17,097 nt of DNA from contig NYVC01000104.1 of assembly GCA_002684375.1 (NCBI GenBank), forward strand, positions 8,204 through 25,300. The letters are read 5' to 3'. Below are positions 747 to 16,630 of the stretch, in pieces (the first letter of the stretch is position 1; each line of letters starts with the position of its first letter). This DNA is from Marinovum sp. Its GTDB lineage: Bacteria; Pseudomonadota; Alphaproteobacteria; Rhodobacterales; Rhodobacteraceae. The position numbers and the translations under genes were made by a program. The notes under the pieces are model-generated. The model was not told the origin of the DNA and did no database searches. It saw only the letters and a program-made list of their open reading frames with translations.

Positions 747-1141
747 GCCGAGATAGCGACATGCTCGAAGCGATGGTGCGGACGTATTTTACTGGGGTCG
801 ACAGTGAAGATATGGATCTGGTGTTCAGCACGCTTGCGCCGGACTGTGTCTTTACCGTTGAGACCCATCAGGTGCATCTGGTCGGGCGTCCTGAGATCAC
901 CGCGATGTTCACGCGGCTTTGGGCCAGCCATAAATCCGTGCGCCATGATCAATTCAAGTTCGTAACAGACCCCCAAGCCGGGCGCGTCGCTGTGCAGTTT
1001 CGGGTGACCAATATCTTGCCTGATGATAGTCTGGTGTATAAATCCAACTGTAACTTTTTCACCGCAACCAAGGGCATGTTCAGCGCAGTTAATGTCTATA
1101 TGGCCGGCGCCAACACCCTGCATGGCCCAAAATCGCCCTAA
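743..1141 (+). CDS. SnoaL-like (NTF2 superfamily) protein
   Basis: This 132-residue protein has the pattern of a SnoaL-like polyketide-cyclase/NTF2-like fold. It has an N-terminal helix (about 6-28, including YFTGVDSEDMDLVFS), a VFTVET strand, a GRPEI loop with the next helix (about 48-62), and a C-terminal sheet (FRVTN, NCNFFTAT). Such proteins are small enzymes or binding modules with a central pocket, and sequence alone does not give the reaction. It overlaps the tautomerase-SnoaL gene by 4 bases (ATGA) and resembles its C-terminal domain in kind, so the two may form a hetero-complex or act on the same intermediate. The 3' end overlaps the convergent racemase-like gene by 4 bases, so transcripts from the two strands meet with no terminator between them. 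Confidence 0.7.
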   Translation: MSRDSDMLEAMVRTYFTGVDSEDMDLVFSTLAPDCVFTVETHQVHLVGRPEITAMFTRLWASHKSVRHDQFKFVTDPQAGRVAVQFRVTNILPDDSLVYKSNCNFFTATKGMFSAVNVYMAGANTLHGPKSP

Positions 1142-4169: not shown

Positions 4170-4193
4170 TTGCCAGCGCGCAATGTCGGATTT

Positions 4194-4217
4194 GGCGGCA
4201 GACTATGCTCTGCCGCC
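4194..4217 (+). other. Stem-loop between binding-protein and permease genes
   Basis: A perfect 9-base stem (GGCGGCAGA / TCTGCCGCC) with the 6-base loop CTATGC lies 25 bases after the binding-protein stop. No T-run follows it, so it is not a classical intrinsic terminator. Such hairpins often sit between binding-protein and permease genes, where they protect the upstream mRNA or partly stop transcription, so that binding protein exceeds membrane components. That role is inferred here. Confidence 0.6.
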
Positions 4218-4263
4218 TCATCCCTTCGGCTGGTCCTGTGCACATAATTAATAGGTTAATTTA

Positions 4264-5166
4264 ATGGAATTTCTGGGACTTGATCTGCCAAGTTACGGCT
4301 GGGAAACGGTACTGGGCTCTGCAATTAGCGGTGTTTTTCTGGGGTCAATTTATGCGTTGGTGGCGCTGGGTTTAACGTTGATTTACGGTGTCTTGCACAT
4401 CATCAACTTTGCCCATGGCGCGCTGTTGATGCTGGCGATGTACGCCGTTTTTTTCCTGTGGAAATTTCTGGGACTTGACCCCTATCTCGCGATGATAATC
4501 GTTGTACCGGGGGCCTATGTCTTTGGTTATGGGTTACAGCGCGGTATCATCGGTAAGGCCAGTCACGGACGGGACGAAATAATCCTGCTGGTTACTTTGG
4601 GGGTTTCGATCGTGATCGAAAATGCTGCGCTGTTTTTCTTCTCAGCCAGCGAACGATCTGTTCTGGTCCCCTATGATCTGGACGGTATTGATCTTGGTGT
4701 GACCTACGCGGTCTATCCCGAGCTTATCGCGCTGGGCGGGTCATTGTTGATCACCTTTGCGCTGTGGCTGTTTATGAGCTTAACCGACACCGGCAAAGCC
4801 ATCCGTGCGGTCGCCAAAGAGCGCCAAGGCGCACGTCTTGTCGGAATTAATGTCGATCATATCTTTGCGGTAACGTTTGGCATCGGCACCGCCTGTGTTG
4901 CTGCAGCTGCCAGCCTTTTGGTGCCGACCTACGCAGTGCATCCACAGATCGGTTATCTGTTCGTTCTGATCGCTTTTACGGTTGTGGTCCTCGGTGGCAT
5001 GGGCAGTTTTATAGGCGCGCTTGTCGGGGGCTTTCTCATCGGCGTCACAGAACAGCTGGGTAGGCTGTATCTGGGCGAGAGCATGGGGGTCATTACAATC
5101 TCGGTGATTTTCATTCTTGTTCTGCTGTTCAGGCCGACGGGTCTGTTTGGCCAACGCAGCGGATGA
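4264..5166 (+). CDS. Branched-chain amino acid/amide-type ABC transporter permease (LivH-like)
   Basis: This 300-residue inner-membrane permease of the LivH family is hydrophobic throughout, with about eight predicted membrane segments. The family signature near the N-terminus is clear (GLTLIYGV and IINFAHG, residues 36-52). A cytoplasmic coupling loop with GKAIRAVAKERQGARLVGIN begins at residue 177; this is the region that contacts the ATPases. A late GGMGSFIGALVGG segment and the C-terminal RPTGLFG are also typical. It pairs with the LivM-like permease encoded 10 bases downstream to form the channel. The ribosome site is weak (AGG in an A/T-rich leader). With the preceding stem-loop, this would lower its expression relative to the binding protein. 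Confidence 0.9.
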   Translation: MEFLGLDLPSYGWETVLGSAISGVFLGSIYALVALGLTLIYGVLHIINFAHGALLMLAMYAVFFLWKFLGLDPYLAMIIVVPGAYVFGYGLQRGIIGKASHGRDEIILLVTLGVSIVIENAALFFFSASERSVLVPYDLDGIDLGVTYAVYPELIALGGSLLITFALWLFMSLTDTGKAIRAVAKERQGARLVGINVDHIFAVTFGIGTACVAAAASLLVPTYAVHPQIGYLFVLIAFTVVVLGGMGSFIGALVGGFLIGVTEQLGRLYLGESMGVITISVIFILVLLFRPTGLFGQRSG

Positions 5167-5176
5167 GGGCGCTTTT

Positions 5177-6193
5177 ATGACCACACGCGAACGGATTTTA
5201 GGCTGGGCTTTCATCCTGTGTGCACTGGCCCTCGCACCACTTTTTATCACATCAAATCGCTGGATCGATTTTCTAGAACTCACGCTGTTTATCGCTGTTT
5301 TGGGACAAGGCTGGAACGTTCTGGGCGGATATGGCGGACAGTACTCTTTTGGACATGCGGTATTTTTCGGCACGGGCGCGTATATTCAGGCGCTGCTGCA
5401 ATACAAACTTGGCTGGAGTCCTTGGCTGACCCTATGGTTTGCTATATCCGGCACTGCGGCCGTGGCGGCAATGATCGGCTATCTAAGTTTTCGTTACGGT
5501 CTGCGGGGTTCTTATTTTGCGCTGATAACACTGGCGTTTGCCGAAGCGTTCCACGTTGTGTCACGGTCTTGGTCTTCGTTTACCGAGGGTGGACAAGGTG
5601 TGCAGTTGACCCTTAACCAAGACCCCGCGCTTGCGCTTGCGACGTTCCAGTTCAGTTTCGGCGGGCCGTTTATGAAAGCCTACGGGTTCTACTATACGAT
5701 TTTTGCCATTTTGCTGATCAGCTATGCGGCCACTTGGTGGATGGAGCATTCTCGTTTTGGCGCTCAGCTGGTGGCCGTGCGCGAAAATGAGGACGCCGCC
5801 GAAGCCTTGGGGGTCAATGCTTTTGCGGTCAAAATGCGGGCAATCTGCCTTTCGGCTGCAATCACCGCCAGCGGCGGGGTGTATTACGTGCAAAAGTTTC
5901 TCTTTATCGAGCCCGGCATTGCGTATGGCACCGCGAAATCGGTTGAGGCGCTGTTTGCGCCGATTATCGGTGGTCTGGGTACCGTGCTTGGCCCGTTAAT
6001 CGGCTCGTTCTTTATTCACGGAGTGGGCGAGGTCGCAAAAGAAGCGATACACGGGATTTTTGGCGACCGGCCAGGGGTTGATTTGATATTGTTTGGCATC
6101 ATTCTGGTCTTGATACTCGCCTTTGCGCCCCGTGGTTTGGTCGGGCTTTTAGAACGGGTGTGGATTCGCCTGAAAGCGAGGCGGGATGCTTGA
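5177..6193 (+). CDS. Branched-chain amino acid/amide-type ABC transporter permease (LivM-like)
   Basis: This 338-residue LivM-family inner-membrane permease has the hallmark GQYSFGHAVFFGTGAY (54-69) and a coupling loop with RFGAQLVAVRENEDAAEALG (from about residue 193). It ends in a GGLGTVLGPLIGS membrane segment and the typical RGLVGL near the C-terminus. I placed the start at the ATG at 5177, after GAGGGCG, rather than at an in-frame ATG at 5117. The 5117 start would overlap the LivH gene by 50 bases and add a non-family N-terminus rich in Cys and Arg. The 3' end overlaps the ATPase gene by 8 bases (ATGCTTGA). It forms the transmembrane pore with the LivH-like subunit. Confidence 0.9.
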   Translation: MTTRERILGWAFILCALALAPLFITSNRWIDFLELTLFIAVLGQGWNVLGGYGGQYSFGHAVFFGTGAYIQALLQYKLGWSPWLTLWFAISGTAAVAAMIGYLSFRYGLRGSYFALITLAFAEAFHVVSRSWSSFTEGGQGVQLTLNQDPALALATFQFSFGGPFMKAYGFYYTIFAILLISYAATWWMEHSRFGAQLVAVRENEDAAEALGVNAFAVKMRAICLSAAITASGGVYYVQKFLFIEPGIAYGTAKSVEALFAPIIGGLGTVLGPLIGSFFIHGVGEVAKEAIHGIFGDRPGVDLILFGIILVLILAFAPRGLVGLLERVWIRLKARRDA

Positions 6194-6935
6194 CGTTCGC
6201 ACAATGTCGAAAAGCTTTGGCGGCTTGAAAGCGGTCTCAGAGGCGTCCCTCACAGTATCTGAGGGCAGTATCGTATCGTTGATCGGGCCTAATGGTGCTG
6301 GCAAGACCACTCTATTTGCGCTTATTTCGGGATTTCTAAAGCCTGACAGCGGGGCGGTGACCTTTAACGGCGCTGCCATAACTGGTCAAAGGCCACATCA
6401 AATCTGTCATAAAGGGCTGGTACGAACCTTTCAGGTGGTCCAGCCTTTTGCTGGTCTCACAGTGCGCGAAAACATCGCGGTAGGGGCGCATACGCGGGTT
6501 ACCGGGCGCGCCGCAGCGCTTGCGGCAGCAGGTGAGATTGCGCAATTGGTGGGAATGGGGGCCCAGCTGGATCAATCTGCCGGGGATTTGACAATTGCCG
6601 GACGCAAGCGGCTTGAATTGGCGCGGGCGCTGGCGACCGGGCCAAAGCTGTTGCTGCTCGATGAGGTCATGGCGGGGCTGAATGCGACAGAGATTGCAGA
6701 CCTGGTGGCTGTCGTGCGCAAAATCCGTGACAGCGGCGTGACGATTTTTCTGATCGAACATGTCATGCAGGCGGTTATGAGCCTGTCCGACTATACCTAT
6801 GTGCTCAACCATGGAGCGATGATTGCCGAGGGGCAACCAAGCCAAGTGACAAAAGATCCAAATGTGATCGAGGCTTATCTGGGGCATGGAGCGGCAAAAC
6901 GTCTTTTGGCGATGGAGGCAACTGCAGATGCTTGA
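6186..6935 (+). CDS. ABC transporter ATP-binding protein (LivG-like)
   Basis: This 249-residue cytoplasmic ATPase of the LivG family has Walker A GPNGAGKTT (34-42), a Q-loop around FQVVQPFAGL (82-91), a signature-helix region LTIAGRKRLELARAL (135-149), Walker B LLLLDE (155-160) and the H-loop IEHVM (190-194). The canonical LSGGQ is replaced by LTIAG, a variant common in LivG proteins and not a defect. The C-terminus has the usual LivG tail (HGAMIAEG, then VIEAYLG). It overlaps LivM and LivF by 8 bases on each side with the identical junction ATGCTTGA, implying coupled translation. It would pair with the LivF-like ATPase to energise uptake. Confidence 0.92.
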   Translation: MLDVRTMSKSFGGLKAVSEASLTVSEGSIVSLIGPNGAGKTTLFALISGFLKPDSGAVTFNGAAITGQRPHQICHKGLVRTFQVVQPFAGLTVRENIAVGAHTRVTGRAAALAAAGEIAQLVGMGAQLDQSAGDLTIAGRKRLELARALATGPKLLLLDEVMAGLNATEIADLVAVVRKIRDSGVTIFLIEHVMQAVMSLSDYTYVLNHGAMIAEGQPSQVTKDPNVIEAYLGHGAAKRLLAMEATADA

Positions 6936-7629
6936 GGTGCAAAGCCTACATGCAGGCTATGGTCAGATGAAAGTCTTGCAAGGCGTCGATCTCAATATCC
7001 AGCAGGGCGAAATCGTTGCTCTTTTGGGCAGTAATGGCGCAGGCAAATCGACCCTGAATAATAATATTTCTGGCATTTACACCCCGACTGCGGGCGCGAT
7101 TTTGTTTGAAGGCGAAGACATCACCGGCCTGCGTTCTGAACAAGTGGTACAAAAAGGCATCATCCATGTCCCTGAGGGCCGGCGTATTTTTCCGAATATT
7201 TCAGTGCGTGAAAATCTTGAGTTGGGCAGTTATCTGCGCGGGCAGCAAAATCGGAAGGCCAATCTTGACCGGGTGGTCGGCGTATTTCCGCGCTTGCAAG
7301 AGCGTTTTTCGCAACTGGCTGGAACCCTGTCAGGGGGCGAACAGCAAATGCTGGCGATTGGCCGTGGGATGATGGCGGAACCACGTCTGATGATCCTCGA
7401 CGAACCCTCGCTTGGCCTGTCACCGCTGTTGGTTGAGGAAATGTTTGGCCTGATCCAGAATTTCAATAAAACCGGACTTTCGTTCTTTCTGGTCGAGCAG
7501 AATGTAATGCAATCGCTTGAAATCGCCAACCGGGCCTATGTGATCGAAAACGGTAAAATTGTTTTATCGGGAAACACAGATGCTTTGCTGAACGATCCCG
7601 AGCTTAAAAAATCCTATCTGGGAGTGTAA
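6928..7629 (+). CDS. ABC transporter ATP-binding protein (LivF-like)
   Basis: This 233-residue ATPase of the LivF family has Walker A GSNGAGKST (34-42), a Q-loop region with VPEGRRIFPNISVREN (81-96), signature LSGGEQQ (134-140), Walker B LMILDEP (154-160), a D-loop SLGLSP (161-166) and the switch segment VEQN (189-192). I chose the ATG at 6928, which overlaps the LivG stop by 8 bases. It gives the family N-terminus MLEVQSLHAGYG, whereas an in-frame ATG at 6886 would add 14 unrelated residues. It completes the five-gene transporter. A 148-base gap follows before the next gene, the first real break after the transporter. Confidence 0.92.
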   Translation: MLEVQSLHAGYGQMKVLQGVDLNIQQGEIVALLGSNGAGKSTLNNNISGIYTPTAGAILFEGEDITGLRSEQVVQKGIIHVPEGRRIFPNISVRENLELGSYLRGQQNRKANLDRVVGVFPRLQERFSQLAGTLSGGEQQMLAIGRGMMAEPRLMILDEPSLGLSPLLVEEMFGLIQNFNKTGLSFFLVEQNVMQSLEIANRAYVIENGKIVLSGNTDALLNDPELKKSYLGV

Positions 7630-7761: not shown

Positions 7762-7778
7762 AGAGGTATACCCTCTCA
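7762..7778 (+). promoter_or_regulatory. Ribosome site inside a small hairpin before the lyase gene
   Basis: The only plausible Shine-Dalgarno for the lyase gene, AGAGG (7762-7766), can pair with CCTCT (7772-7776) just upstream of the ATG at 7778. The sequence is a near-palindrome centred on GGTATACC (7765-7772). The same octamer CCCTCTCA occurs at 7710-7717 and again at 7771-7778, where it runs into the start codon. Translation start could thus be dampened by structure, or the palindrome could be a DNA operator. Confidence 0.3.
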
Positions 7779-8671
7779 TGAGCGAATATTTTTCATTGCG
7801 TCAGCGGCTAGCCGCACCCGGGATAACCATAGTTCCCGGCATCTATGACGCATTGGGGTCTGTTTTGGTACAGCAGGTCGGCTATCACGTGGCCTATCTG
7901 TCCGGCGCCTCGATCGCCTATACCCGATTTGGCCGACCCGATATTGGTCTTGTTGGGATGAGCGAGGTCGCAGAAACCTTATCGGCGATCACCGAAAGAA
8001 GCGACCTGCCAGTTATCGTCGATGGAGATACCGGATTTGGCAATGCTTTGAACGTAATGCGTACGGTACGATTGTTTGAAACCTGCGGTGCTGCGGCGAT
8101 CCAGTTGGAAGATCAGACACTACCCAAGCGCTGTGGCCATCTTACGGGAAAAACGCTCGTGCCCAAAGGCGAGATGGTGGGAAAGATCAAGGCGGCCCTT
8201 GATGCGCGCCGGCAGGCCGAGACTTTGATCATCGCCCGCACCGACGGTATCGCAGTCGAGGGCTTTGATGCCGCTTTGGAGCGTGCCGAACATTATGTCG
8301 AAGCTGGAGCAGATGTTCTTTTTGTCGAGGCCCCACAAACTCCAAGCCAGATGCGGGCAATCGTGGCGCAGTTCGGCGGCCGTATTCCCCTGATGGCAAA
8401 CATGGTAGAGGGCGGCATGACCCCACAGAAAACTGCAGCAGAACTGCAAGATATCGGCTATTCACTGGTGATTTTCCCCGGAGGCATGGTGCGGGCTATG
8501 GCCCATAGCGCACGAGCATATCTTGAGAGCCTTAATACCCATGGAACAAACCAACCGTTTCGTGATCAGATGCTAGATTTCTCAGAGTTGAATGAGATGC
8601 TTGGCACAGACAATATGCTCGCAATCGGGGCAAGATATGACGCAAAAAACTTCGAGGATACCCATGATTGA
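7778..8671 (+). CDS. Isocitrate lyase/PEP mutase-superfamily carbon-carbon lyase
   Basis: This 297-residue enzyme has the alpha/beta-barrel pattern of the isocitrate lyase/PEP mutase superfamily. It has PGIYDALGS (20-28), YLSGASIAYTRFGRPD (40-55), the Mg-binding strand IVDGDTGFGN (80-89), QLEDQ (109-113), the lyase loop KRCGH (117-121) and the following IIARTDG. The KRCGH loop supplies the catalytic cysteine in isocitrate, 2-methylisocitrate and 2,3-dimethylmalate lyases, and it is missing from the oxaloacetate decarboxylase and phosphonate branches. A retro-aldol/Claisen-type cleavage of a substituted malate or (iso)citrate is therefore likely, giving a 2-oxoacid (pyruvate or glyoxylate) plus a carboxylic acid. 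The length is close to that of methylisocitrate and dimethylmalate lyases. It overlaps the hydantoinase subunit gene by 8 bases. With the LeuCD-like hydratase it could form a hydrate-then-cleave module. No prp genes are nearby, so 2-methylcitrate metabolism is less likely. Confidence 0.85.
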   Translation: MSEYFSLRQRLAAPGITIVPGIYDALGSVLVQQVGYHVAYLSGASIAYTRFGRPDIGLVGMSEVAETLSAITERSDLPVIVDGDTGFGNALNVMRTVRLFETCGAAAIQLEDQTLPKRCGHLTGKTLVPKGEMVGKIKAALDARRQAETLIIARTDGIAVEGFDAALERAEHYVEAGADVLFVEAPQTPSQMRAIVAQFGGRIPLMANMVEGGMTPQKTAAELQDIGYSLVIFPGGMVRAMAHSARAYLESLNTHGTNQPFRDQMLDFSELNEMLGTDNMLAIGARYDAKNFEDTHD

Positions 8672-10394
8672 TCCGGTTACACTGGCAGTCCTGAAGGGCC
8701 GTCTGGAACAGATAGCCGACGAGATGGACGCCACGTTGTTTCGTAGCGCGTTCAACCCGATCATCGCCGAGGCCCATGATGCCTCGCATGGGCTTTATGA
8801 TGCAGAAACCGGTGATACATTGGTTCAAGGGAAATCTGGCTTGCCGATTTTCGTCGGGGCGATGTCTTTTGCTGTCAAAGCGGTGATCGAGAAGGCCGCA
8901 AAAGATGGCGATCTCGCCGAGGGTGACGTCTATATTTTCAACGATCCTTACGATGGCGGCACCCATCTTTCAGATTTTCGGTTGGTGCGCCCGGTCTTCC
9001 GCGATGGCATTGTATTTTGTTATCTGGCCTCGGTCGGACATTGGCATGATGTTGGGGGCAATGTGCCGGGAAACTATAATCCAGTTGCGACCGAATGCTT
9101 TCAAGAGGGGATGTTGATCCCTCTTGTTAAGTTATTTGTCAAAGGCGAGATGCGGCAGGATATCGTCGACATTCTCAGTGCCAATTCGCGGCTGCCGGGC
9201 TCGCTGTATGGCGATTTGAACGGTCAGATCAACGCCCTTGATCTCGGTTTGCGGCGGATGACCGCGCTGCTGGATGAATATGGCGATGAGACGGTTTCAG
9301 AGGCACTGGCCGAATTACGCAATCGGGCCGCGACCCTGATGGCGGCAAACATCGCTGAATTGCCCGACGGGACCTATTCGGCAGAAGACTTTCTCGACAA
9401 TGATGGCATTGTCGATATGCCGTTGAAAATTGCGCTTGATCTTTCCATTAAAGGCGACCGTATGGTGCTTGATTTCTCACGCAGCGCCAAAGCCTGCGCC
9501 GGGCCTGTCAACATTGCGCTCTCAACAGCGGTGGCGTCGGTCTATGTTGCGATCAAACATGTGTTCACAGACGTGCCGGCTAATGGCGGTGTGTTGGAGC
9601 CTATTGAGACGATTATTCCCGACGACTCTCTGCTGAGCGTGCGGGCTCCAAAACCGGTAGGTGGCTATACCGAGACCATTTTACGCATCATTGATGTTAT
9701 ATTTTGCGCGATTGCACAGGTCGCACCTGAACGGGTGAATGGCTGTGCGTATGGCACAATTAATGCGTTGTCTCTGGCCGGGCACCGTCAGAATAACAGT
9801 CGCTGGGTGATGTTCAGCTTCTTTGGTGGCGGCCATGGCGGACACCCCAAGGGAGACGGACTCAATCATGGCAATGCCCCGATTTCAACCGCAACCATTC
9901 CGCCGGCGGAAATTCTTGAAGCCGCCTATCCCGTTATCTTCACTCAATGGGCGCTGCGCCCCGACAGTGGCGGACCCGGCCGCCATCGGGGAGGCCTTGG
10001 TGCGGTTTATGAAATTGAATTGCTCGAGGAAACAGCCAATGCCTTCGTCTTCGGAGAGCGCGGTAAATTCGGCCCACCCGGAGTGCTGGGTGGCGGACCC
10101 GGGGCGCGCAATGTGTTTCGGTATGAGCAAGACGATGGCTATTATCACCCACCACAAATTTCCAAGATGGTCGGGATCAAAATCACGAGGGGTCAGCATC
10201 TGCGGCTTGAGACACCCGGTGGGGGCGGGTATGGCGCCGCAAATCAAAGGGACCCCAAGGCGGTGGCGCGGGATGTTTCCTTGGGCTATGTTACGGCCGC
10301 TAGGGCCGAGACCGATTATCTGGTGCGATTAGATGCGTACGGCGATCCAGACATACCCGCTACCCAACGTTTGAGAAAAGCAGCGCAATCATGA
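8664..10394 (+). CDS. hyuB: Hydantoinase B/oxoprolinase family protein
   Basis: This 576-residue subunit belongs to the HyuB/5-oxoprolinase-C family. Landmarks are the N-terminal DPVTLAVLKGRLEQIADEM (from residue 3), NDPYDGGTHLSD (93-104), GHWHDVGG near residue 127, GGGHGGHPKGDG in the C-terminal half, DSGGPGRHRGGLG from residue 434, and a late GGGGYG. With HyuA it forms ATP-dependent hydrolases of cyclic amides (N-methylhydantoinase, 5-oxoprolinase) or, in relatives, ketone carboxylases. The start at 8664 has GAGGA 5 bases upstream and gives the family N-terminus. In-frame ATGs at 8592 and 8637 would extend into the lyase gene and lack a good ribosome site. The 5' end overlaps the lyase gene by 8 bases (ATGATTGA), and the 3' end overlaps hyuA by 4 (ATGA). 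The order B then A is less usual than A then B. The true substrate is unknown. Confidence 0.88.
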   Translation: MIDPVTLAVLKGRLEQIADEMDATLFRSAFNPIIAEAHDASHGLYDAETGDTLVQGKSGLPIFVGAMSFAVKAVIEKAAKDGDLAEGDVYIFNDPYDGGTHLSDFRLVRPVFRDGIVFCYLASVGHWHDVGGNVPGNYNPVATECFQEGMLIPLVKLFVKGEMRQDIVDILSANSRLPGSLYGDLNGQINALDLGLRRMTALLDEYGDETVSEALAELRNRAATLMAANIAELPDGTYSAEDFLDNDGIVDMPLKIALDLSIKGDRMVLDFSRSAKACAGPVNIALSTAVASVYVAIKHVFTDVPANGGVLEPIETIIPDDSLLSVRAPKPVGGYTETILRIIDVIFCAIAQVAPERVNGCAYGTINALSLAGHRQNNSRWVMFSFFGGGHGGHPKGDGLNHGNAPISTATIPPAEILEAAYPVIFTQWALRPDSGGPGRHRGGLGAVYEIELLEETANAFVFGERGKFGPPGVLGGGPGARNVFRYEQDDGYYHPPQISKMVGIKITRGQHLRLETPGGGGYGAANQRDPKAVARDVSLGYVTAARAETDYLVRLDAYGDPDIPATQRLRKAAQS

Positions 10395-12457
10395 CCGATC
10401 CTTCCTCTCGTTATGTTGTCGGCGTCGATGTCGGCGGAACCTTCACGGATGTATTTTTCCTCAATGAGGCCTCTGGGCAGTGTCACGTGGCCAAAGTGCC
10501 CTCAACACTGGGGAACCAGTCTCAAGGCTTTATTGAAGGCATCAAGGCGCATGTTGCCGATTTTGCCCAGCTGGCCACGGTGGTGCACGGCACAACGGTC
10601 GGGACCAACGCATTGTTGGAACGTAAAGGCGCAAAAACCGGTATCATCACAACGGCCGGGTTTCGCGATACCTTGGAAATGCGCCGGCGTGACAGGCCGC
10701 AAACCTGGGGGCTATGGGGGGAATACGACCCAGTTGTTTCTCGCGATTGCCGGGTTGAGGTGTCCGAACGCACGCTGGCAGATGGCACCATCCACGCTGT
10801 GGTCGATCCTGAAGAGGTCCGGCAGGCGGCGCTGCATCTGCTTGGTCTCGGCGTCGAGGCGATCTGTGTTGTATTTATCAATGCCTATGCCAATGCCGCC
10901 AACGAACAAAGCGCTCTGAGTGCGGTAAAGCAGGTCTGGCCCAATGATCACGCTGAGGCTTCCAGCAACATCCTGCCTGAAATTCGCGAATTTGAACGCA
11001 CGTCAACCACAACGTTGAACGCCTATCTTCAGCCATTGGTGGGCAACTATCTGCACAAATTGGAAACGGCGCTGTTGCAGGATGGTTTTTCGGGTGAGGT
11101 TTTGATTGTGCAATCCAACGGCGGGGTGATGACGGTAGAGACAGCACGGCGTCTGCCTGTGCGCACCGCTTTGTCGGGTCCGGCCGCAGGTGTCATTGCC
11201 AGTGCCTATATCGCCACCGAGGCTGGGTTTCCCAATGTCATTACCTGTGACATGGGCGGTACCAGTTTTGATGTCTCATTGGTGGCGCATGGGGAAAGTG
11301 CGTTGAGCCCTCAAACCAATATCGATTTCGGGATGACAATCCGAACACCGATGATTGAAATGACCACAATCGGCGCTGGCGGCGGATCTATTGCCAGCGT
11401 AGATCGCGGCGGATTGTTGCAAATCGGGCCAGAATCTGCGGGCTCATACCCGGGACCGGTTTGCTATGGACAGGGCAACACACGCCCGACCGTGACCGAC
11501 GCCAACGTGGTTCTGGGACGGATCAACGCGGACAAACCTATTGGCGGTAAACTTAACCGCTTGGACGTCGATCGCGCAAAATTGGCGATTGAAACCCATA
11601 TTGGAACGCCTTTGGGCCTGTCTGTGATGGCAGCAGCCGAGGCGATTATCCGCGTTGCAAATTCAAAAATGGCCGGCGCTATTCGGTTGGTGTCAATTGA
11701 ACGTGGACATGACCCCAAAAATTTCTCGGCAATGCCTTTTGGCGGCGGCGGTGCGCTGCACACGGGCGCATTGATGAAAGAGGTCGGGCTTCAAAGTGCT
11801 CTGGTGCCGCGCTATCCCGGTATTAACAGCGCGCTGGGCTGTACAATTGCCGATATGCGTCATGATTTTGTCCAAACTATCAATGGGATGTTGGGAAGCT
11901 TGGATATCGATGATCTGGACCGGCGCATGGTGCAATTGGCACAAAAGGGCCTTGCCATGTTAAAGACCGCCGGGGTTACCTTTGGTGGTACGGCGCTGCA
12001 GTTCGAGCTTGATATGAGCTATCAGGGCCAAACCCATACCGTTGATGTGCCAGTACCACTGGAACTCAGGGGCGATACCACTAAGGTATCTGAGGCCGCG
12101 GTGAGGGCGGCGTTTGAAACCCGCTATCTGGCTGTTTATGGCAGATTGCTTGACAATATACCTATCCGGGTTTTGAACTTGAGGGTGTCGACCCTCGGCA
12201 AACGGCCCAAATTTGATCTCACACTTTTGGCCCCGGCGGCGGGCGTTGATCTGGCTCAGGCGCGCAGGGGGACGCGTCAAGTTTGGTTCGACGGAGCTTT
12301 TCATGAAACCGGGGTTTATGAACGTTTGCCGCTTTCTGTTGGAGAAATTGTGCCGGGCCCAGCGCTTTTAGAACAACCGGATGCAACAGTTTTCATCGAA
12401 CCTGATCTCACGGGGTGCGTTGATCAATTTGGCAATCTGGTTATCTCGCGGAAATGA
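10391..12457 (+). CDS. hyuA: Hydantoinase A/oxoprolinase family protein (ATPase subunit)
   Basis: This 688-residue protein of the HyuA/5-oxoprolinase-N family has an actin/Hsp70-like ATPase core. It has phosphate-1 motif GVDVGGTFTD (11-20), VVHGTTVGTNALLERKGAK (near 64-82), ALSGPAAGV, phosphate-2 motif CDMGGTSFDV (286-295), GAGGGSIA, and the GGGGALH segment. The C-terminal region after about residue 500 is the usual HyuA accessory beta domain (ending VFIEPDLTGCVDQFGNLVI). It would phosphorylate an imide or lactam carbonyl so that the HyuB partner can complete ring opening. The length is typical. All ATPase motifs look intact, so an active ATP-dependent enzyme is expected. It is translationally coupled to hyuB (ATGA overlap) and lies 4 bases before the isochorismatase-fold gene, so the two products likely act in sequence. 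Confidence 0.9.
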   Translation: MTDPSSRYVVGVDVGGTFTDVFFLNEASGQCHVAKVPSTLGNQSQGFIEGIKAHVADFAQLATVVHGTTVGTNALLERKGAKTGIITTAGFRDTLEMRRRDRPQTWGLWGEYDPVVSRDCRVEVSERTLADGTIHAVVDPEEVRQAALHLLGLGVEAICVVFINAYANAANEQSALSAVKQVWPNDHAEASSNILPEIREFERTSTTTLNAYLQPLVGNYLHKLETALLQDGFSGEVLIVQSNGGVMTVETARRLPVRTALSGPAAGVIASAYIATEAGFPNVITCDMGGTSFDVSLVAHGESALSPQTNIDFGMTIRTPMIEMTTIGAGGGSIASVDRGGLLQIGPESAGSYPGPVCYGQGNTRPTVTDANVVLGRINADKPIGGKLNRLDVDRAKLAIETHIGTPLGLSVMAAAEAIIRVANSKMAGAIRLVSIERGHDPKNFSAMPFGGGGALHTGALMKEVGLQSALVPRYPGINSALGCTIADMRHDFVQTINGMLGSLDIDDLDRRMVQLAQKGLAMLKTAGVTFGGTALQFELDMSYQGQTHTVDVPVPLELRGDTTKVSEAAVRAAFETRYLAVYGRLLDNIPIRVLNLRVSTLGKRPKFDLTLLAPAAGVDLAQARRGTRQVWFDGAFHETGVYERLPLSVGEIVPGPALLEQPDATVFIEPDLTGCVDQFGNLVISRK

Positions 12458-12461
12458 AAGG

Positions 12462-13076
12462 ATGTCACAGGTGACTAAGCTAAATCTGGAGCGCACAGCG
12501 CTTGTTTTGGTGGATATGCAAAACGATTTTCTGCATCCCGAAGGGGCCTATGGTCGCAACGGCCAAACCTGCGATGCCATTGCGCAGTTGGCTGAACGCT
12601 TGGCTCCATTGGCACAGGCGATGCGTGCGGCCGGAGGCTGGATCGTTTCCACCCACTTTACGCTGGTGCCAGGCAGGAAAGGTGTGCCGTTTATCTCGCC
12701 CCATCTGCGCAGTTTGCGACCGTTTTTAGGAGCCGGTGATTTCGCCTCGGGCAGCTTTGGCCACCAGTTGATTGATGAATTGCAACCAGCAGATTTGACC
12801 GTTGAAAAAGTTGCATTTTCGGCGTTTTATCAAAGCCGTTTGGAGTGGGTCCTATCCCGCGCAGGTCTTGAAACGCTGATATTTGGCGGTATTGTCACCA
12901 ATGGCGGTGTAGCCTCGACGGTGCGCGATTCCCATGTGCGCGATTTTCATAACATTGTGTTGTCAGACGGATGTGCGGCGTTCAGCGAGGCCGCGCATGA
13001 GGCCACCATTGCCGCGCTTTCGACGATTGCGCAGATCAAAACCTGCGATGAGGTATTATCGCAATTGAAGGTTTGA
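12462..13076 (+). CDS. Isochorismatase-fold hydrolase with the nucleophilic Cys replaced by Gly
   Basis: This 204-residue isochorismatase-like (cysteine hydrolase family) protein has VLVDMQNDF (15-23) with Asp18, VEKVAFSAFYQS (114-125) with Lys116, and the nucleophile elbow GGIVTNGGVASTVRDSHVRDF (142-162). Relatives that hydrolyse amides (N-carbamoylsarcosine amidohydrolase, maleamate amidohydrolase, nicotinamidase) read TN-x-C-V here. In this protein the Cys position is Gly149 (codon GGT). Asp and Lys of the triad remain, as in true isochorismatases (EntB, PhzD), which lack that Cys and hydrolyse a vinyl ether. Its role next to HyuAB suggests handling of the ring-opened product, but normal thioester amidase chemistry looks impossible. 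The start is uncertain: the ATG at 12462 directly abuts AAAGG, while GTG at 12471 has better spacing and would give 201 residues. Confidence 0.8.
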   Translation: MSQVTKLNLERTALVLVDMQNDFLHPEGAYGRNGQTCDAIAQLAERLAPLAQAMRAAGGWIVSTHFTLVPGRKGVPFISPHLRSLRPFLGAGDFASGSFGHQLIDELQPADLTVEKVAFSAFYQSRLEWVLSRAGLETLIFGGIVTNGGVASTVRDSHVRDFHNIVLSDGCAAFSEAAHEATIAALSTIAQIKTCDEVLSQLKV

Positions 13077-13079
13077 GGC

Positions 13080-14477
13080 ATGCCAGTGCTGTCAGCGTCT
13101 GATGGACCAAAATTTCAGGCACAGGTTGATGCCTTGATCATAGGGGGTGGAGCTTGCGGCATGATCGCGGCACTGGCGGCCAAAGACGCAGGGGCCGAAC
13201 CGGTCATTGTCGAGCGTGACGCCATCCCAAGCGGTAGCACTGCGTTATCATCGGGGATGATTCCGGCCTGCGGCACGCGTCAGCAAACCGATTGTAACAT
13301 CACTGATACGGTGCAGATTATGAGCGGGGATATCCAGCGCAAAGCTCATGATGAGGCGAATGCGGCGCTGGTCCAGCGACTTTGTGAGCTGTCGGGGCCT
13401 GTGATAGATTGGCTTTGCGTGCGCCATCACCTGAATCTGACCTTAGTTGAGGGATTTCTTTATCCCGGCCATAGTGTTCCGCGGATGCATGCCCCGCCGT
13501 CGCGCGCCGGGGCCGACCTAATGGCTGATCTTAGTCGGGCGGTTGCCGTGGCAGATATCCCAGTGATGACGCAGGCGCATGTAACCGACCTATATGCCGA
13601 CACCCACGGCGGTGTCACGGGCACGCGCATCAAACGCCCAGACGGTGGGGTTGAATATATTGGCTGTGAGGTCTTAATCCTTGCGTGCAACGGCTTTGGG
13701 GGAAACGCAGACATGGTGCAAACCCATATTCCGGATATGGCAGACGCCCTTTATTTTGGTCATCAGGGCAATCAGGGTGACGCGATTGTCTGGGGGCAGG
13801 CCTTGGGCGCGGAAACGCGGCATTTAGGATCGTACCAAGGGCATGGTTCAGTTGCCCAGCCCCATGGCATTTTGATAAGCTGGGCACTGATGATGCAGGG
13901 CGGGTTGCAAATCAATTGCGATGGCAAGCGGTTTTCCAACGAGCATCAAGGCTATTCCGAACAGGCGCGCCGGGTGATTGCTCAACCTGGCGGCACTGTC
14001 TGGAACCTGTTTGACGCCCGGTTGCTGCACTTGGGTCGCGGGTTTGAGGATTTTCGTCAAGCTGAGGCTTTAGGGGCCATACAAACAGCCCACACCATTG
14101 CAGAACTAGCGAAATTGATCTCTGTGCCTGGCGCGCATCTGGCCGAGACTTTGGCTCAAGTTGCGCGCTATGCGTCGGGAACAGATCAAGATGTTTTTGG
14201 CAGGGACTTCACACAAACGCCTATTCTTGAGCCGCCTTATTATGCGCTTAAAGTCACCGGCGCTTTGTTTCACACCCAGGGGGGGCTGGCCATTGATGGC
14301 GATGCGAGAGTGTTGCGCCGCGATGGCAAAGCGTTACCAAACTTATTGGCAGGAGGTGGCGCCGCTTGCGGCGTGTCTGGGTCGCAGGACTGGGGCTATC
14401 TGTCGGGCAACGGTTTGCTGACCGCCGCAACGCTGGGCTATTGCGCCGGGGTTACCGCCGCTGGATTGCTGGGATGA
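13080..14477 (+). CDS. FAD-dependent oxidoreductase (FAD_binding_2, fumarate reductase/KstD-like)
   Basis: This 465-residue flavoprotein has an N-terminal dinucleotide fold (ALIIGGGACGMIAA, glycines at 22-27) with a following acidic VIVERD (42-47). Its second landmark is GKRFSNE, and it ends with FHTQGGLAID (His398), a GGGAACGVSG flavin loop and GYLSGNGLLTAATLGYCAG. This architecture is shared by soluble fumarate reductases, tricarballylate dehydrogenase and 3-ketosteroid dehydrogenases, which add or remove hydrogen across a C-C bond. By my alignment two arginines essential in fumarate reductase are not conserved (the region after RFSNE has Tyr, and the NRLGG segment is SQDWG). A desaturase or dehydrogenase on a different acid is therefore more likely. 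No signal peptide or haem motif is seen, so it is cytoplasmic. It starts 3 bases after the isochorismatase-fold gene, with GAAGG upstream. Confidence 0.85.
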   Translation: MPVLSASDGPKFQAQVDALIIGGGACGMIAALAAKDAGAEPVIVERDAIPSGSTALSSGMIPACGTRQQTDCNITDTVQIMSGDIQRKAHDEANAALVQRLCELSGPVIDWLCVRHHLNLTLVEGFLYPGHSVPRMHAPPSRAGADLMADLSRAVAVADIPVMTQAHVTDLYADTHGGVTGTRIKRPDGGVEYIGCEVLILACNGFGGNADMVQTHIPDMADALYFGHQGNQGDAIVWGQALGAETRHLGSYQGHGSVAQPHGILISWALMMQGGLQINCDGKRFSNEHQGYSEQARRVIAQPGGTVWNLFDARLLHLGRGFEDFRQAEALGAIQTAHTIAELAKLISVPGAHLAETLAQVARYASGTDQDVFGRDFTQTPILEPPYYALKVTGALFHTQGGLAIDGDARVLRRDGKALPNLLAGGGAACGVSGSQDWGYLSGNGLLTAATLGYCAGVTAAGLLG

Positions 14478-14529
14478 GCGAATGCCGGCGCAGCTGCGAT
14501 CGCGTTAAGGCGGAGCCAGTTGCAGGCCT

Positions 14530-14543
14530 TGACAGATTTGTCA
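14530..14543. promoter_or_regulatory. Inverted repeat before the LeuCD-like genes, candidate operator
   Basis: A perfect repeat TGACA-GATT-TGTCA sits in the 156-base gap between the flavoprotein and LeuC-like genes. It includes a consensus -35 hexamer TTGACA (14529-14534). The best -10 candidate at 17-18 bases (around 14552-14558, GTTATGA) is poor. It may be an operator over a secondary promoter for the hydro-lyase genes. The rest of the gap shows no convincing gene. Confidence 0.35.
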
Positions 14544-14633
14544 GTTGTGTCGTTATGAAAACGGTCACCACGCAAGATTTGCAAAAGAACCCCGTTTTGA
14601 CGATATCCAAAGTTAAAGAGATGAACACGACAG

Positions 14634-16022
14634 ATGATAAGTTCTCAAACGCTGGTTGAAAAAATATGGAATAACCATCGTATCCTCAGCAATGAGGGCA
14701 TGGATTTGCTGTTTATAGACCGACATTTCGTGCATGAAGGATCTCATCATGCCTTTCACAAAATATCAGCATCGGGGCGTGAGGTACGACATCCTCGGCT
14801 GACCTTTGGTGTTGCCGATCACTATGCGCCCACGGGGGTTGGAAAACCCGATGAAGCAATGTCAGTTATGATCTCGCGACTGCGGGAAAATACCGCACAA
14901 CACCGCATCGATAGCTTTGATCTAAGTGATGCACGTCATGGGATTGTGCATGTTACCATGCCCGAACAAGGGCTCAGCTTGCCGGGAACAACCATCGTAT
15001 GTGGCGATAGCCACACCGCCACTCATGGCGCATTCGGAGCGTTTGCATTTGGGATCGGGGCCTCGGAAGTCGCCCATGTGCTGGCCACGCAAACCCTGTG
15101 GCAAAAGCCGGTTGAACCGATGCGGATTACGATCAACGGCCGTTTGCCCTTTGGCACCAGTGCAAAAGACCTGGCGCTGTACGTGATCGCCCAGATTGGC
15201 ACGGGAGGAGCGGCCGGATATTCGGTTGAATACGCAGGTGATACGGTTGCCGGGCTCTCGATTGAAGGCCGGATGACCCTGTGTAATATGACCATCGAAA
15301 TGGGCGCCCGGTCGGGCATTATTCCACCCGACGACATCACATTTGCCTGGCTTAAAGGGCGCGCCCTGGCACCTGTTGGCGCAGATTGGGACACGGCCGT
15401 AGCGCAGTGGCGGGATTTAAAGTCTGATAGAAACGCGACATTTAAGAAAGATCTCACGATAGAGGCTTCAAACGTAGTGCCAATGGTAACTTGGGGCACG
15501 GCACCAGATCAGGTGGCCGCAGTAACAGCATGTGTGCCGTCTGATGGGGCCGATGATGCCGCGCTGCGCTATATGGGTCTGACTGCTGGACAAGCGATCA
15601 CAGCAATGCCCATCGATCAGGCCTTTATCGGATCTTGTACCAATGGCCGCTATTCGGATTTGCTTGAGGCCAGTCGGGTATTGCTCGACAATCAAGTCAA
15701 AGTGCCTTTGCTCATATCGCCGGGGTCCGCCGAGGTCGCGCGGCAGGCCGAAGCAAACGGGCTGGTCGATATTTTCATTCAATCGGGGGCCACATGGGCG
15801 CGCAGCGGATGCTCGCTCTGCGTCGGGATGAATGGCGACCGGGTCAAACCGGGTCAGCGCTGTGCCTCGACCTCCAATCGCAACTTTAAAGGCCGACAGG
15901 GCAAGGGCTCGCGGACCCATTTGATGAGCCCTGCAATGGTTGCGGCCGCCGCGGTGGCAGGATGCATCGTCGATGTGCGCCAACATGCCGGATATCGGCG
16001 CTCTGGGTCGGTGCCAAGATGA
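14634..16022 (+). CDS. LeuC-like hydro-lyase large subunit (aconitase superfamily)
   Basis: This 462-residue large subunit resembles 3-isopropylmalate dehydratase. The N-terminus TLVEKIWNNHRI is family-typical and supports the start at 14634 despite a weak ribosome site. It contains IDRHFVHEGSHHAF, the VCGDSHTATHGAFGAFAFGIGASEVAHVLATQTLW region, and all three 4Fe-4S ligands: Cys335 in GSCTNGRYSDL, and Cys393 and Cys396 in GCSLCVGMN. It ends with TSNRNFKGRQGKGSRTHLMSP. These enzymes reversibly hydrate cis-double-bond diacids. There is no leuA or leuB nearby, and the neighbours are catabolic. A role as a (substituted) maleate hydratase, as in dimethylmaleate hydratase or maleate hydratase, is thus more likely than leucine synthesis. 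It overlaps the small-subunit gene by 4 bases. Confidence 0.88.
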   Translation: MISSQTLVEKIWNNHRILSNEGMDLLFIDRHFVHEGSHHAFHKISASGREVRHPRLTFGVADHYAPTGVGKPDEAMSVMISRLRENTAQHRIDSFDLSDARHGIVHVTMPEQGLSLPGTTIVCGDSHTATHGAFGAFAFGIGASEVAHVLATQTLWQKPVEPMRITINGRLPFGTSAKDLALYVIAQIGTGGAAGYSVEYAGDTVAGLSIEGRMTLCNMTIEMGARSGIIPPDDITFAWLKGRALAPVGADWDTAVAQWRDLKSDRNATFKKDLTIEASNVVPMVTWGTAPDQVAAVTACVPSDGADDAALRYMGLTAGQAITAMPIDQAFIGSCTNGRYSDLLEASRVLLDNQVKVPLLISPGSAEVARQAEANGLVDIFIQSGATWARSGCSLCVGMNGDRVKPGQRCASTSNRNFKGRQGKGSRTHLMSPAMVAAAAVAGCIVDVRQHAGYRRSGSVPR

Positions 16023-16630
16023 GACCCTTTACCGTACTAACCGGTGACTGCGTTTTGATGCCCTCGGAAAATATTGATACCGACCAGTTGATACCAGCCC
16101 GTTTTATGAACAGGACGCGTTCTTCTGGGTACGGCGGGTATCTTTTTTATGATTTACGCTATGACGCGCACGGTGCGCAAATACCTGAATTTGAGCTGAA
16201 CAAAACGAGTGGATCAGAAGTAATCTTGGTCGGTGGCCAAAATTTTGGCTGTGGGTCATCACGGGAAGCGGCAGTTTACGCGCTGCTAGATTATGGATTC
16301 CGGGCCATTGTAGCACCGAGCTTTGGCGATATATTTCGCAACAATGCCAGCAAAAATGGACTTTTGACGGTGCCTCTTAAGGATCAAGATCATACTGAAT
16401 TTGTCGAACAGTTGTCGCAATCGGGGTCTACGAATGTCAAAATTGATCTGGCGATGCAAACTCTTGGATTTACGTCTGGCGCCAACTTTAGCTTTGAGAT
16501 TGACCCCGCAATCAAACGCAAGATGTTGCAGGGGATCGATGATCTTGCTGAAACTTTGCAATACAAAGCCATGATAGAGAATTTCGAAACGAAGTATCTT
16601 CGAAGCAAACCGTGGCTATTTCCGAAATAA
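16019..16630 (+). CDS. LeuD-like hydro-lyase small subunit
   Basis: This 203-residue swivel-domain subunit partners the LeuC-like protein. Clear family landmarks are MPSENIDTDQLIPARFM, GYLFYDLRYDAHG, GGQNFGCGSSRE (72-83), DYGFRAIVAPSFGDIFRNNASKNGLL, and a C-terminal tail that ends PWLFPK. The start at 16019 overlaps the LeuC-like stop (ATGA). An in-frame ATG at 15962 would add 19 non-family residues inside the upstream gene. After the active-site loop GCGSSRE the usual His-Ala is Ala84-Ala85 (typical LeuD: SSREHA), which might alter substrate choice. With the large subunit it would form a heterodimeric Fe-S hydratase. It is the last gene of the + strand run, and mobile DNA starts within about 150 bases. 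No clear terminator follows. Confidence 0.88.
   Translation: MRPFTVLTGDCVLMPSENIDTDQLIPARFMNRTRSSGYGGYLFYDLRYDAHGAQIPEFELNKTSGSEVILVGGQNFGCGSSREAAVYALLDYGFRAIVAPSFGDIFRNNASKNGLLTVPLKDQDHTEFVEQLSQSGSTNVKIDLAMQTLGFTSGANFSFEIDPAIKRKMLQGIDDLAETLQYKAMIENFETKYLRSKPWLFPK

What the first reader, a model, noticed from the sequence alone, without database searches (positions are those of the whole stretch)
7778..16630. Possible undescribed pathway: cyclic amide/imide opening followed by hydration and cleavage of a substituted malate
Seen: the genes for an isocitrate-lyase-family enzyme with KRCGH, HyuB, HyuA, an isochorismatase-fold protein, a flavoprotein, LeuC-like and LeuD-like subunits lie in one direction, mostly overlapping, behind one transporter and one UTRA regulator. 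Known: LeuCD-like dimethylmaleate hydratase plus dimethylmalate lyase (isocitrate lyase superfamily) end anaerobic nicotinate degradation; maleamate amidohydrolase has the isochorismatase fold; maleate isomerase has the Asp/Glu racemase fold; HyuAB opens cyclic amides. Inferred: an imide or lactam is opened, converted to an alkylmaleate, hydrated and cleaved to a 2-oxoacid plus an acid. Alkylmaleimides from tetrapyrrole breakdown would be one fitting natural substrate in the sea, but this is a guess. I do not know a described pathway with exactly this set.
Basis: partly seen in the sequence, partly recalled or inferred. Interest (0 to 1): 0.72.

Follow-up and report, generated by a model that had tools for sequence, protein, structure and literature searches.

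The report
Modular cyclic-imide breakdown operon
A bacterium carries a tightly packed set of genes that looks like an undescribed route for opening a small nitrogen ring and cutting the resulting branched acid in two; the set recurs in distant microbes, with single steps swapped for unrelated enzymes that do the same kind of chemistry.

Summary
Seven genes (lyase, HyuB, HyuA, isochorismatase-fold protein, flavoprotein, LeuC-like, LeuD-like) are intact, co-directional and mostly overlapping and recur together elsewhere. The strongest evidence is new: single steps are replaced by unrelated enzymes. HyuAB is swapped for an imidase/PuuE-like pair or a D-hydantoinase-like protein; LeuCD for MmgE/PrpD; the flavoprotein for acyl-CoA dehydrogenase plus CoA transferase; the lyase for CoA transferase plus HMG-CoA-lyase-like protein. 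This supports ring opening, dehydrogenation, hydration and C-C cleavage. LeuCD here is not the leucine enzyme. Two corrections: the isochorismatase-fold protein lacks the catalytic cysteine of maleamate amidohydrolase (Gly149), and the flavoprotein lacks the two succinate-binding arginines. So the amide-hydrolysis step, the order of steps and the substrate are open. Alkylated succinimides/maleimides from tetrapyrrole breakdown fit but are untested. Keyword searches of open-licence papers listed no description of this set.

The parts
2063..2896 (+). GntR/UTRA-family regulator
   Evidence: Rv0792c/HutC-type models, below cut-offs; GntR hits in 25 of 80 loci
2934..7629 (+). LivK-H-M-G-F ABC transporter (2934-4169, 4264-5166, 5177-6193, 6186-6935, 6928-7629)
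   Evidence: (LivK); same position and order in Azospirillum oryzae L031; in Roseomonas L038 followed by MmgE/PrpD
7778..8671 (+). lyase of the isocitrate lyase/PEP mutase superfamily, KRCGH motif; cleaves the substituted malate (inferred)
   Evidence: PrpB model 291.7 bits, cut-off 354.4; best solved relative petal death protein 1zlp, E=4.7e-57; KRCGH in 75 of 81 lyases of the loci
8637..10394 (+). HyuB-type subunit (ATP-dependent cyclic amide opening, inferred)
   Evidence: caprolactamase beta model 306.9 bits, cut-off 1000; ATG at 8637 (sequence)
10391..12457 (+). HyuA-type subunit
   Evidence: caprolactamase alpha model 523.3 bits, cut-off 1000
12462..13076 (+). isochorismatase-fold hydrolase without the catalytic cysteine (Asp18, Lys116 kept; Cys position is Gly149)
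13080..14477 (+). FAD enzyme of the fumarate reductase/urocanate reductase/ketosteroid dehydrogenase fold; alpha,beta-dehydrogenase (inferred); His255 and His398 kept, Tyr292 and Tyr440 in place of the two substrate arginines
14634..16022 (+). LeuC-like hydratase large subunit
16019..16630 (+). LeuD-like hydratase small subunit
183..746 (+). 4-oxalocrotonate-tautomerase-like domain (Pro after Met) fused to a SnoaL-like domain; recurring accessory gene
   Evidence: first gene of the HyuAB run in Sulfitobacter L032; with the set in 12 of 16 same-genus/family genomes and 15 of 80 loci
743..1141 (+). SnoaL-like protein, accessory
   Evidence: hits in 5 of 80 loci
1138..1902 (-). Asp/Glu/hydantoin-racemase-family protein, accessory
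   Evidence: relatives beside the set or the flavoprotein in L033, L060, L065, L070, L130, L207

Best explanation
A catabolic operon for a small saturated cyclic imide (or closely related lactam) carrying one or two alkyl substituents. Proposed course: uptake by LivKHMGF; HyuAB opens the ring at the cost of ATP; the remaining amide nitrogen is released, probably with the isochorismatase-fold protein; the flavoprotein removes two hydrogens to give a C=C next to the carbonyl(s), making an alkylated maleate-type acid (or doing so already at the imide or half-amide stage); LeuCD hydrates it to a substituted malate; the KRCGH lyase cleaves that by a retro-aldol to a 2-oxoacid plus a carboxylic acid, and ammonia is gained. 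Shown here: presence, intactness, conserved linkage, and step-by-step replacement by unrelated enzymes of the same kind of chemistry. Inferred: every reaction, their order, and the substrate. A substrate-assisted amide hydrolysis (neighbouring carboxylate of a dialkylmaleamate as nucleophile) would explain an amidase without cysteine; this is a chemical argument from recalled knowledge, not a result.
For: Same gene order in Azospirillum oryzae. Ring-opening step replaced: of 80 loci, HyuAB only 38, imidase/PuuE-like pair only 20, both 1, neither 21; the Acidiphilium pair resembles PuuE (119.3 and 94.7 bits, cut-off 424.6) and its first member solved PuuE and 3qbu, the group that PMC9304392 connects to cyclic imide hydrolases (passages); Haloferax has a D-hydantoinase-like protein instead. 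Hydratase replaced: LeuCD only 36, MmgE/PrpD only 12, both 3, neither 29 of 80, and two LeuC lineages. Dehydrogenase replaced: Tistrella pTM2 has acyl-CoA dehydrogenase + CoA transferase (closest to succinate-glutarate and succinyl-CoA:mesaconate CoA-transferase models, below cut-offs) between the isochorismatase-fold gene and LeuCD; same in L211, L214, L216, all of one genus. Cleavage replaced: CoA transferase + HMG-CoA-lyase-like in Haloferax and Acidiphilium (Haloferax protein over the HMG-CoA lyase subfamily cut-off, 285.5 of 246). Most LeuCs of imidase-type operons branch within the same lineages as those of HyuAB-type operons (Acidiphilium's is outside on a long branch). Genome-wide co-occurrence: 21 of 22 genomes with the Cys-less protein also hold the flavoprotein, which is in 36 of 289 (Fisher p 2e-20 without the own genome, relatedness not corrected).
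Against: The isochorismatase-fold protein of the HyuAB variant lacks the nucleophile of the amidases of that fold (RutB Cys = Gly149), so the deamidation step has no proven enzyme. The flavoprotein lacks both succinate-binding arginines, so it may not act on a free dicarboxylate. 21 of 80 loci show no opener at >=40% (18 of these are under 19 kb). Of 8 flavoprotein stretches from 7 class-level genomes, 6 show no other core step nearby. Paraburkholderia L205 (one of six such records) has opener, isochorismatase-fold protein, lyase and LeuCD, but no flavoprotein or acyl-CoA dehydrogenase was found in its 24.6 kb or in L208, which runs 11.6 kb further. No enzyme was assayed; the substrate is unknown.
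Confidence: 0.66

Rival explanations
1. The substrate is a lactam or unsaturated pyrrolinone rather than an imide, and the Cys-less isochorismatase-fold protein works like true isochorismatase (acid-base hydrolysis of an enol-ether- or enamine-like bond), not as an amidase.
Against: Hydratase, flavoprotein and lyase are alike in both variants, which suggests that the same acid is formed; the imidase-type opener is related to cyclic imide enzymes.
Confidence: 0.2
2. A hydantoin/ureide pathway: HyuAB opens a hydantoin, the RutB/biuret-hydrolase-like protein removes the carbamoyl group, the racemase-family protein is a hydantoin racemase, and the rest handles the carbon skeleton.
For: RutB and biuret or triuret hydrolases are among the best matches of the isochorismatase-fold protein; a racemase-family gene lies at 1138-1902.
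Against: No aminotransferase or ammonia-lyase among the window proteins scanned (the other long frames are the transporter genes); RutB needs the cysteine that is missing here (8bll, which has Ser there, reads as a mutant form); the racemase-family proteins have Thr/Ser where hydantoin racemase has its two Cys (sequences; motif recalled).
Confidence: 0.1
3. The LeuCD-like pair is a spare leucine-biosynthesis isopropylmalate isomerase that happens to sit beside a hydantoinase operon.
For: Annotators call it leuC/leuD; LeuD passes the leuD cut-off (163.8 vs 116.25) and LeuC nearly passes (551.1 vs 560.25); the LeuC of Tistrella pTM2 passes it (634.1).
Against: Canonical leuC (766.0 bits), leuD (253.2) and leuB (472.2), all over cut-off, lie together on contig C82; operon LeuCs are outside the canonical clade (15 rows, 100/100) and differ from it at positions fixed in both groups (42 of 42 vs 15 of 15 rows at Gly36, His39, Tyr64, Phe139, Trp156, Pro358, Gly401); MmgE/PrpD takes its place elsewhere.
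Confidence: 0.02
4. A tricarballylate- or alkylsuccinate-uptake pathway in which the ring-opening genes only serve amide forms of the same acid.
For: The flavoprotein matches the tricarballylate dehydrogenase model TcuA weakly (132.3 bits, cut-off 369); DctP-type TRAP hits in 17 of 80 loci.
Against: An opener is present in 59 of 80 loci and 44 of the 47 long ones, so it is not optional; the dicarboxylate arginines are absent.
Confidence: 0.08

Closest known systems
Anaerobic nicotinate degradation, last steps: dimethylmaleate hydratase (DmdAB, LeuCD-like) and 2,3-dimethylmalate lyase
   Same: LeuCD-like hydration of an alkylmaleate followed by cleavage by a PrpB-superfamily lyase (pathway recalled; the hydratase reaction is named in PMC8651744, passages)
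   Different: Here preceded by HyuAB or imidase ring opening and a flavoprotein or acyl-CoA dehydrogenase; found mostly in Proteobacteria; no DmdAB sequence was compared
Cyclic imide metabolism: imidase/D-hydantoinase plus half-amidase (Blastobacter, recalled), and fungal HxnM + HxnN
   Same: Imide opened to a half-amide, then to a diacid (PMC9304392 passages; titles in the reference list of PMC9863593)
   Different: Those end at a simple diacid; here dehydrogenation, hydration and C-C cleavage follow, and HyuAB stands in for the imidase in the window
2-Methylcitrate cycle (PrpB methylisocitrate lyase, PrpD 2-methylcitrate dehydratase)
   Same: A PrpB-family lyase and, in variant operons, a MmgE/PrpD protein
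   Different: Lyase below the PrpB cut-off (291.7 vs 354.4); no citrate-synthase-type gene among the window proteins scanned
Caprolactamase CapAB / N-methylhydantoinase HyuAB
   Same: Hydantoinase A and B Pfam domains over full length
   Different: Far below the caprolactamase cut-offs (523.3 and 306.9 of 1000)
Maleamate amidohydrolase NicF/Ami
   Different: Catalytic cysteine position is Gly (by alignment to RutB)

Membership tests
PrpB / dimethylmalate lyase group of the isocitrate lyase superfamily | KRCGH catalytic motif | tested here: met
   window protein and 75 of 81 lyases of the loci (KKCGH 4, RPCGH 1, one truncated without motif)
2-Methylisocitrate lyase PrpB (equivalog) | score over curated cut-off 354.4 | tested here: not met
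   291.7 bits
2,3-Dimethylmalate lyase | cleaves 2,3-dimethylmalate | not testable with these tools
   solved 3fa3 matches with E=3.1e-45; activity unknown
Leucine-biosynthesis isopropylmalate isomerase LeuCD | LeuC over TIGR00170 cut-off 560.25 | tested here: not met
   551.1 bits, just below; canonical own LeuC 766.0; LeuD is over its cut-off (163.8 vs 116.25)
Leucine-biosynthesis isopropylmalate isomerase LeuCD | groups with the LeuC that relatives carry elsewhere in the genome | tested here: not met
   tree of 79 rows
Dimethylmaleate hydratase DmdAB | hydrates dimethylmaleate | not testable with these tools
   no DmdA sequence was compared
Maleamate amidohydrolase / cysteine hydrolases of isochorismatase fold | catalytic Cys | tested here: not met
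   Gly149 aligns with RutB Cys; TNGGV in 120 of 120 listed nearest homologues
Maleamate amidohydrolase / cysteine hydrolases of isochorismatase fold | isochorismatase fold with Asp and Lys | tested here: met
   Asp18 and Lys116 in 81 of 81 aligned proteins of the loci; model and matches
Fumarate reductase / succinate dehydrogenase type flavoprotein | two substrate arginines (402 and 544 of flavocytochrome c3, numbering recalled) | tested here: not met
   Tyr292 and Tyr440 instead, invariant in 27 rows
Tricarballylate dehydrogenase TcuA | score over cut-off 369 | tested here: not met
   132.3 bits
3-Ketosteroid dehydrogenase | score over model cut-off (PRK12844, 789) | tested here: not met
   135.9 bits; KstD-like L198 and L199 (themselves below the cut-off) have Tyr in the column of Tyr292, but their second Tyr is one column after Tyr440
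Caprolactamase CapAB | score over cut-off 1000 | tested here: not met
   523.3 and 306.9 bits
HyuAB (hydantoinase/oxoprolinase) family | Hydantoinase_A, Hydant_A_N, Hydantoinase_B domains | tested here: met
Cyclic imide degradation pathway | turnover of a cyclic imide | not testable with these tools
   inferred from replaced openers

The most novel reading that the evidence does not exclude
An undescribed, modular aerobic pathway by which Proteobacteria and haloarchaea finish the breakdown of tetrapyrroles (chlorophyll, haem, bilins): the mono-pyrrolic leftovers, dihydro- and dialkylmaleimides such as methyl ethyl maleimide and haematinic acid imide, are opened, dehydrogenated, hydrated to dialkylmalates and split (for example to 2-oxobutyrate + propionate, or pyruvate + glutarate). 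In its HyuAB form it uses an amidase that has lost its cysteine because the substrate's own carboxylate serves as nucleophile.
Probability: 0.2. Interest if true: 0.85.

Novelty: new variant of a known kind. Interest (0 to 1): 0.62.

Why it matters
Each chemical step resembles known enzymology, but the assembled route appeared in none of the open-licence papers listed by my searches, and it is hidden by annotations such as 'leuC', 'nitronate monooxygenase' and 'oxaloacetate decarboxylase'. The flavoprotein is in 36 of 289 sampled genomes of the class, so an unknown but widespread nitrogenous compound is probably being consumed. The replacement of four steps (opening, dehydrogenation, hydration, cleavage) by unrelated enzymes gives an unusually direct reading of chemistry from genomes alone, and the Cys-less amidase-fold protein and the Arg-to-Tyr flavoprotein are good targets for new enzymology. 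If the substrate is a tetrapyrrole remnant it would close a gap in the carbon and nitrogen cycles.

Tried and rejected
Leucine-biosynthesis reading of LeuCD: rejected. Maleamate amidohydrolase for the isochorismatase-fold protein: rejected on the missing Cys. Fumarate reductase/succinate dehydrogenase for the flavoprotein: rejected as a strict member. An old-yellow-enzyme gene as a fixed part of the pathway: seen in 3 of 111 loci only. A search for further conserved neighbours among unclassified reading frames gave 13 clusters; judged by eye from their sequences they are mainly general dehydrogenases, transporters and taxon-specific neighbours, and none was scanned against a library. KstD-like L197 came out in a wrong frame and was ignored. 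The structure searches rank urocanate reductase, flavocytochrome c and ketosteroid dehydrogenases within about 5 Z units, so they do not decide the flavoprotein's substrate.

Literature: searches (10 of 10 used). None listed a paper on this gene set; the library holds only open-licence papers, and the searches are by keyword. I saw passages of PMC7318184, PMC7609661, PMC8651744, PMC9304392 and PMC9863593, and only listings for the others. The petal death protein paper (10.1021/bi051776l) and PMC2892964 are not held, so the statement that this protein prefers (2R)-ethyl-(3S)-methylmalate is recalled only.


Full report
What is there. The window is contig C53:8204-25300 of a 3.37-Mb draft genome (84% complete). 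Seven enzyme genes stand on the + strand from 7778 to 16630, after a GntR/UTRA regulator and a LivKHMGF transporter. Distances between neighbours are -35 (HyuB from its ATG at 8637), -4, +4, +3, +156 and -4 bases (which printed -32 for a start at 8640). Each frame is open over the full length of its family match.

Is it conserved? A search of 147 relatives with the flavoprotein found it in 24 genomes, the own one included (E <= 1e-60). I read 24 stretches of the 23 others, covering all 25 listed places (regions). In all 16 same-genus or same-family genomes with a hit the flavoprotein lies beside other members of the set; 12 of the 16 show tautomerase-HyuB-HyuA-isochorismatase fold-lyase-flavoprotein with LeuCD and regulator divergent. 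The same-genus G001 contig ends in HyuA but has isochorismatase fold, flavoprotein and LeuCD at 85-91% identity. Against strict linkage: of 8 stretches from the 7 class-level genomes, 6 (L042, L048, L050, L051, L056, L065) show no other core step near the flavoprotein; for G090 and G123 the rest of the set was later found on another contig (L209, L210). In 52 plasmid records with a flavoprotein relative I read eight neighbourhoods. Azospirillum oryzae has the window's order gene for gene: regulator, LivKHMGF, lyase, HyuB, HyuA, isochorismatase fold, flavoprotein, LeuC, LeuD.

Counts. By blastp to labelled references at >=40% identity: ring opener 59 of 80, isochorismatase fold 60, lyase 54, hydratase 51, opener + isochorismatase fold + lyase + hydratase 42. 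In the 47 loci of >=19 kb: opener 44, isochorismatase fold 42, lyase 42, hydratase 41, full set 36. Control: 20 arbitrary 20-kb stretches of 11 of the relative genomes gave at >=40% one lyase-like and one HyuA hit, in different stretches; HyuAB-like genes at 30-35% occur in two more. The flavoprotein is in 80 of 80 by construction. A test with another bait: the Cys-less isochorismatase-fold protein is in 22 of 289 sampled class genomes (E <= 1e-50), the flavoprotein in 36 (E <= 1e-90), both in 21; without the own genome 20 of 21 against 35 of 288, Fisher p = 2e-20, uncorrected for shared ancestry. In ten of the 22 genomes (one of them, G367, without the flavoprotein) the Cys-less protein, at eleven places, was not near the flavoprotein; I fetched all eleven: HyuAB lies next to it in nine and LeuCD in six. 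Among plasmids, 23 of 30 records with the Cys-less protein are also in the listed rows of the flavoprotein search (40 of 52 rows listed).

Replacement of steps is the main evidence. (a) Ring opening: HyuAB only in 38, a pair of 'polysaccharide deacetylase' proteins only in 20, both in 1, neither in 21 of 80. The Acidiphilium pair matches allantoinase PuuE (119.3 and 94.7 bits, cut-off 424.6) and its first member solved PuuE and 3qbu. PMC9304392 (passages) reports the fungal cyclic imidase HxnM as 64.2% identical to a P. putida cyclic imide hydrolase homologue and structurally close to 3qbu, whose nearest characterised relative is PuuE; an amidase HxnN follows. In Haloferax a D-hydantoinase/dihydropyrimidinase-like protein stands there (249.5 bits, cut-off 393.25); the reference list of PMC9863593 names a D-hydantoinase with cyclic-imide-hydrolysing activity. 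(b) Hydration: LeuCD only 36, MmgE/PrpD only 12, both 3, neither 29 of 80. (c) Dehydrogenation: on Tistrella plasmid pTM2 the order is regulator, HyuB, HyuA (found; not in the annotation), isochorismatase fold, acyl-CoA dehydrogenase, CaiB CoA-transferase, LeuC, LeuD; the transferase is nearest to succinate-glutarate and succinyl-CoA:mesaconate CoA-transferase models, below cut-offs (533.1 of 750, 294.8 of 700); its LeuC is of the operon type (66.9% to an operon LeuC, 55.5% to the best canonical one). (d) Cleavage: HMG-CoA-lyase-like protein plus CoA-transferase in Haloferax and Acidiphilium. Unrelated enzymes that share only the reaction type point to the chemistry: open a cyclic amide, make a C=C next to a carboxyl, add water, split.

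The LeuCD-like pair. The own genome carries canonical leuC (766.0 bits, cut-off 560.25), leuD and leuB together on contig C82. In a tree of 79 LeuC rows, 76 different, the LeuCs that relatives carry elsewhere form, with the own canonical one, a clade of 15 rows (100/100; one gene entered twice; leuB was checked for the own genome only). The window's LeuC falls into a group of 42 rows (96/88), operon LeuCs (two entered twice; one, G042's, lies on a contig whose neighbourhood I did not read), and 20 further operon LeuCs form a second, distant lineage. Two long-branch rows (Acidiphilium and own C115) are unsure. Against the canonical clade the 42 rows share fixed changes, including a one-residue deletion that turns HEVTSPQAF into HEGSxHAF.

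The lyase. KRCGH is in the window protein and 75 of 81 lyases of the loci. Its best solved match is the carnation petal death protein (E=4.7e-57), ahead of the next, a methylisocitrate lyase, by only 4 bits, so this ranking decides nothing. From memory, that plant protein prefers an ethyl-methyl-malate, which would be the hydration product of ethylmethylmaleate; the paper is not held.

Substrate. Evidence for tetrapyrrole remnants is circumstantial: PMC7318184 (passages) lists methyl ethyl maleimide, methyl vinyl maleimide and haematinic acid among haem/chlorophyll breakdown products and cites maleimides and haematinic acid in senescent leaves and lake sediments, while not detecting maleimides itself. 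I did not search the loci systematically for tetrapyrrole genes and saw none among annotated or scanned genes; an old-yellow-enzyme gene with weak similarity to bilirubin reductase models occurs in 3 of 111 loci, and a different one ends 1.8 kb before the window start. The habitats in the listings (marine, soil, plant, saline) fit a common substrate. I give this specific reading 0.2.

Verdict. A real, conserved catabolic module, not described in the papers that my searches listed, with well-supported general chemistry, two unusual enzymes and an unknown substrate.

Noticed in passing
window 1138-1902 (-): Asp/Glu-racemase-family protein with Thr/Ser at the two places where hydantoin racemase has Cys (motif recalled, sequences); relatives, often as pairs, lie beside the set or the flavoprotein in L060, L065, L130, L207, and single ones in L033 and L070.
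   Followed up: partly
window 183-1141 (+): Tautomerase-SnoaL fusion followed by a SnoaL-like gene; the fusion leads the HyuAB run in 12 of 16 same-genus/family genomes and also occurs in imidase-type Halomonas operons. Possibly isomerises a C=C.
   Followed up: partly
L045 (contig C53) 4423-6384 + and 2933-3688 -: Upstream of the window: a 653-aa old-yellow-enzyme-type protein (mycofactocin OYE, BaiCD and bilirubin reductase long-form models, below cut-offs) and a cysteate racemase CuyB over cut-off.
   Followed up: no
L044 (contig C115) 240-7141: A third LeuCD-like pair next to a DctP-type TRAP transporter and a LysR-type regulator in the same genome, on a long branch of the LeuC tree.
   Followed up: no
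L186 (G028:C29:1-20000): A control stretch holds a distant lyase + LeuC + LeuD set at 35-41% identity with a TRAP permease: perhaps a sister pathway without ring opening.
   Followed up: no
L034 8682-9653 (-), L033 10745-11722 (-): Genes annotated nitronate monooxygenase and tRNA-dihydrouridine synthase are old-yellow-enzyme relatives (NamA model 283.2 bits, below cut-off, for L034; the L033 protein is 63% identical to it).
   Followed up: partly
L034 806-1705 (-): 'Oxaloacetate decarboxylase' beside HyuB is a PrpB-type lyase (296.2 bits to prpB, cut-off 354.4).
   Followed up: partly
L076, L083, L085, L096, L104, L125, L133: In several MmgE/PrpD variants a binding protein and permease that look like a polar-amino-acid ABC transporter recur (judged from the sequence only).
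   Followed up: no
L205 13626-14624: Reading frame matching Pfam Peptidase_M91 ('effector protein') beside the Paraburkholderia set; named only.
   Followed up: no
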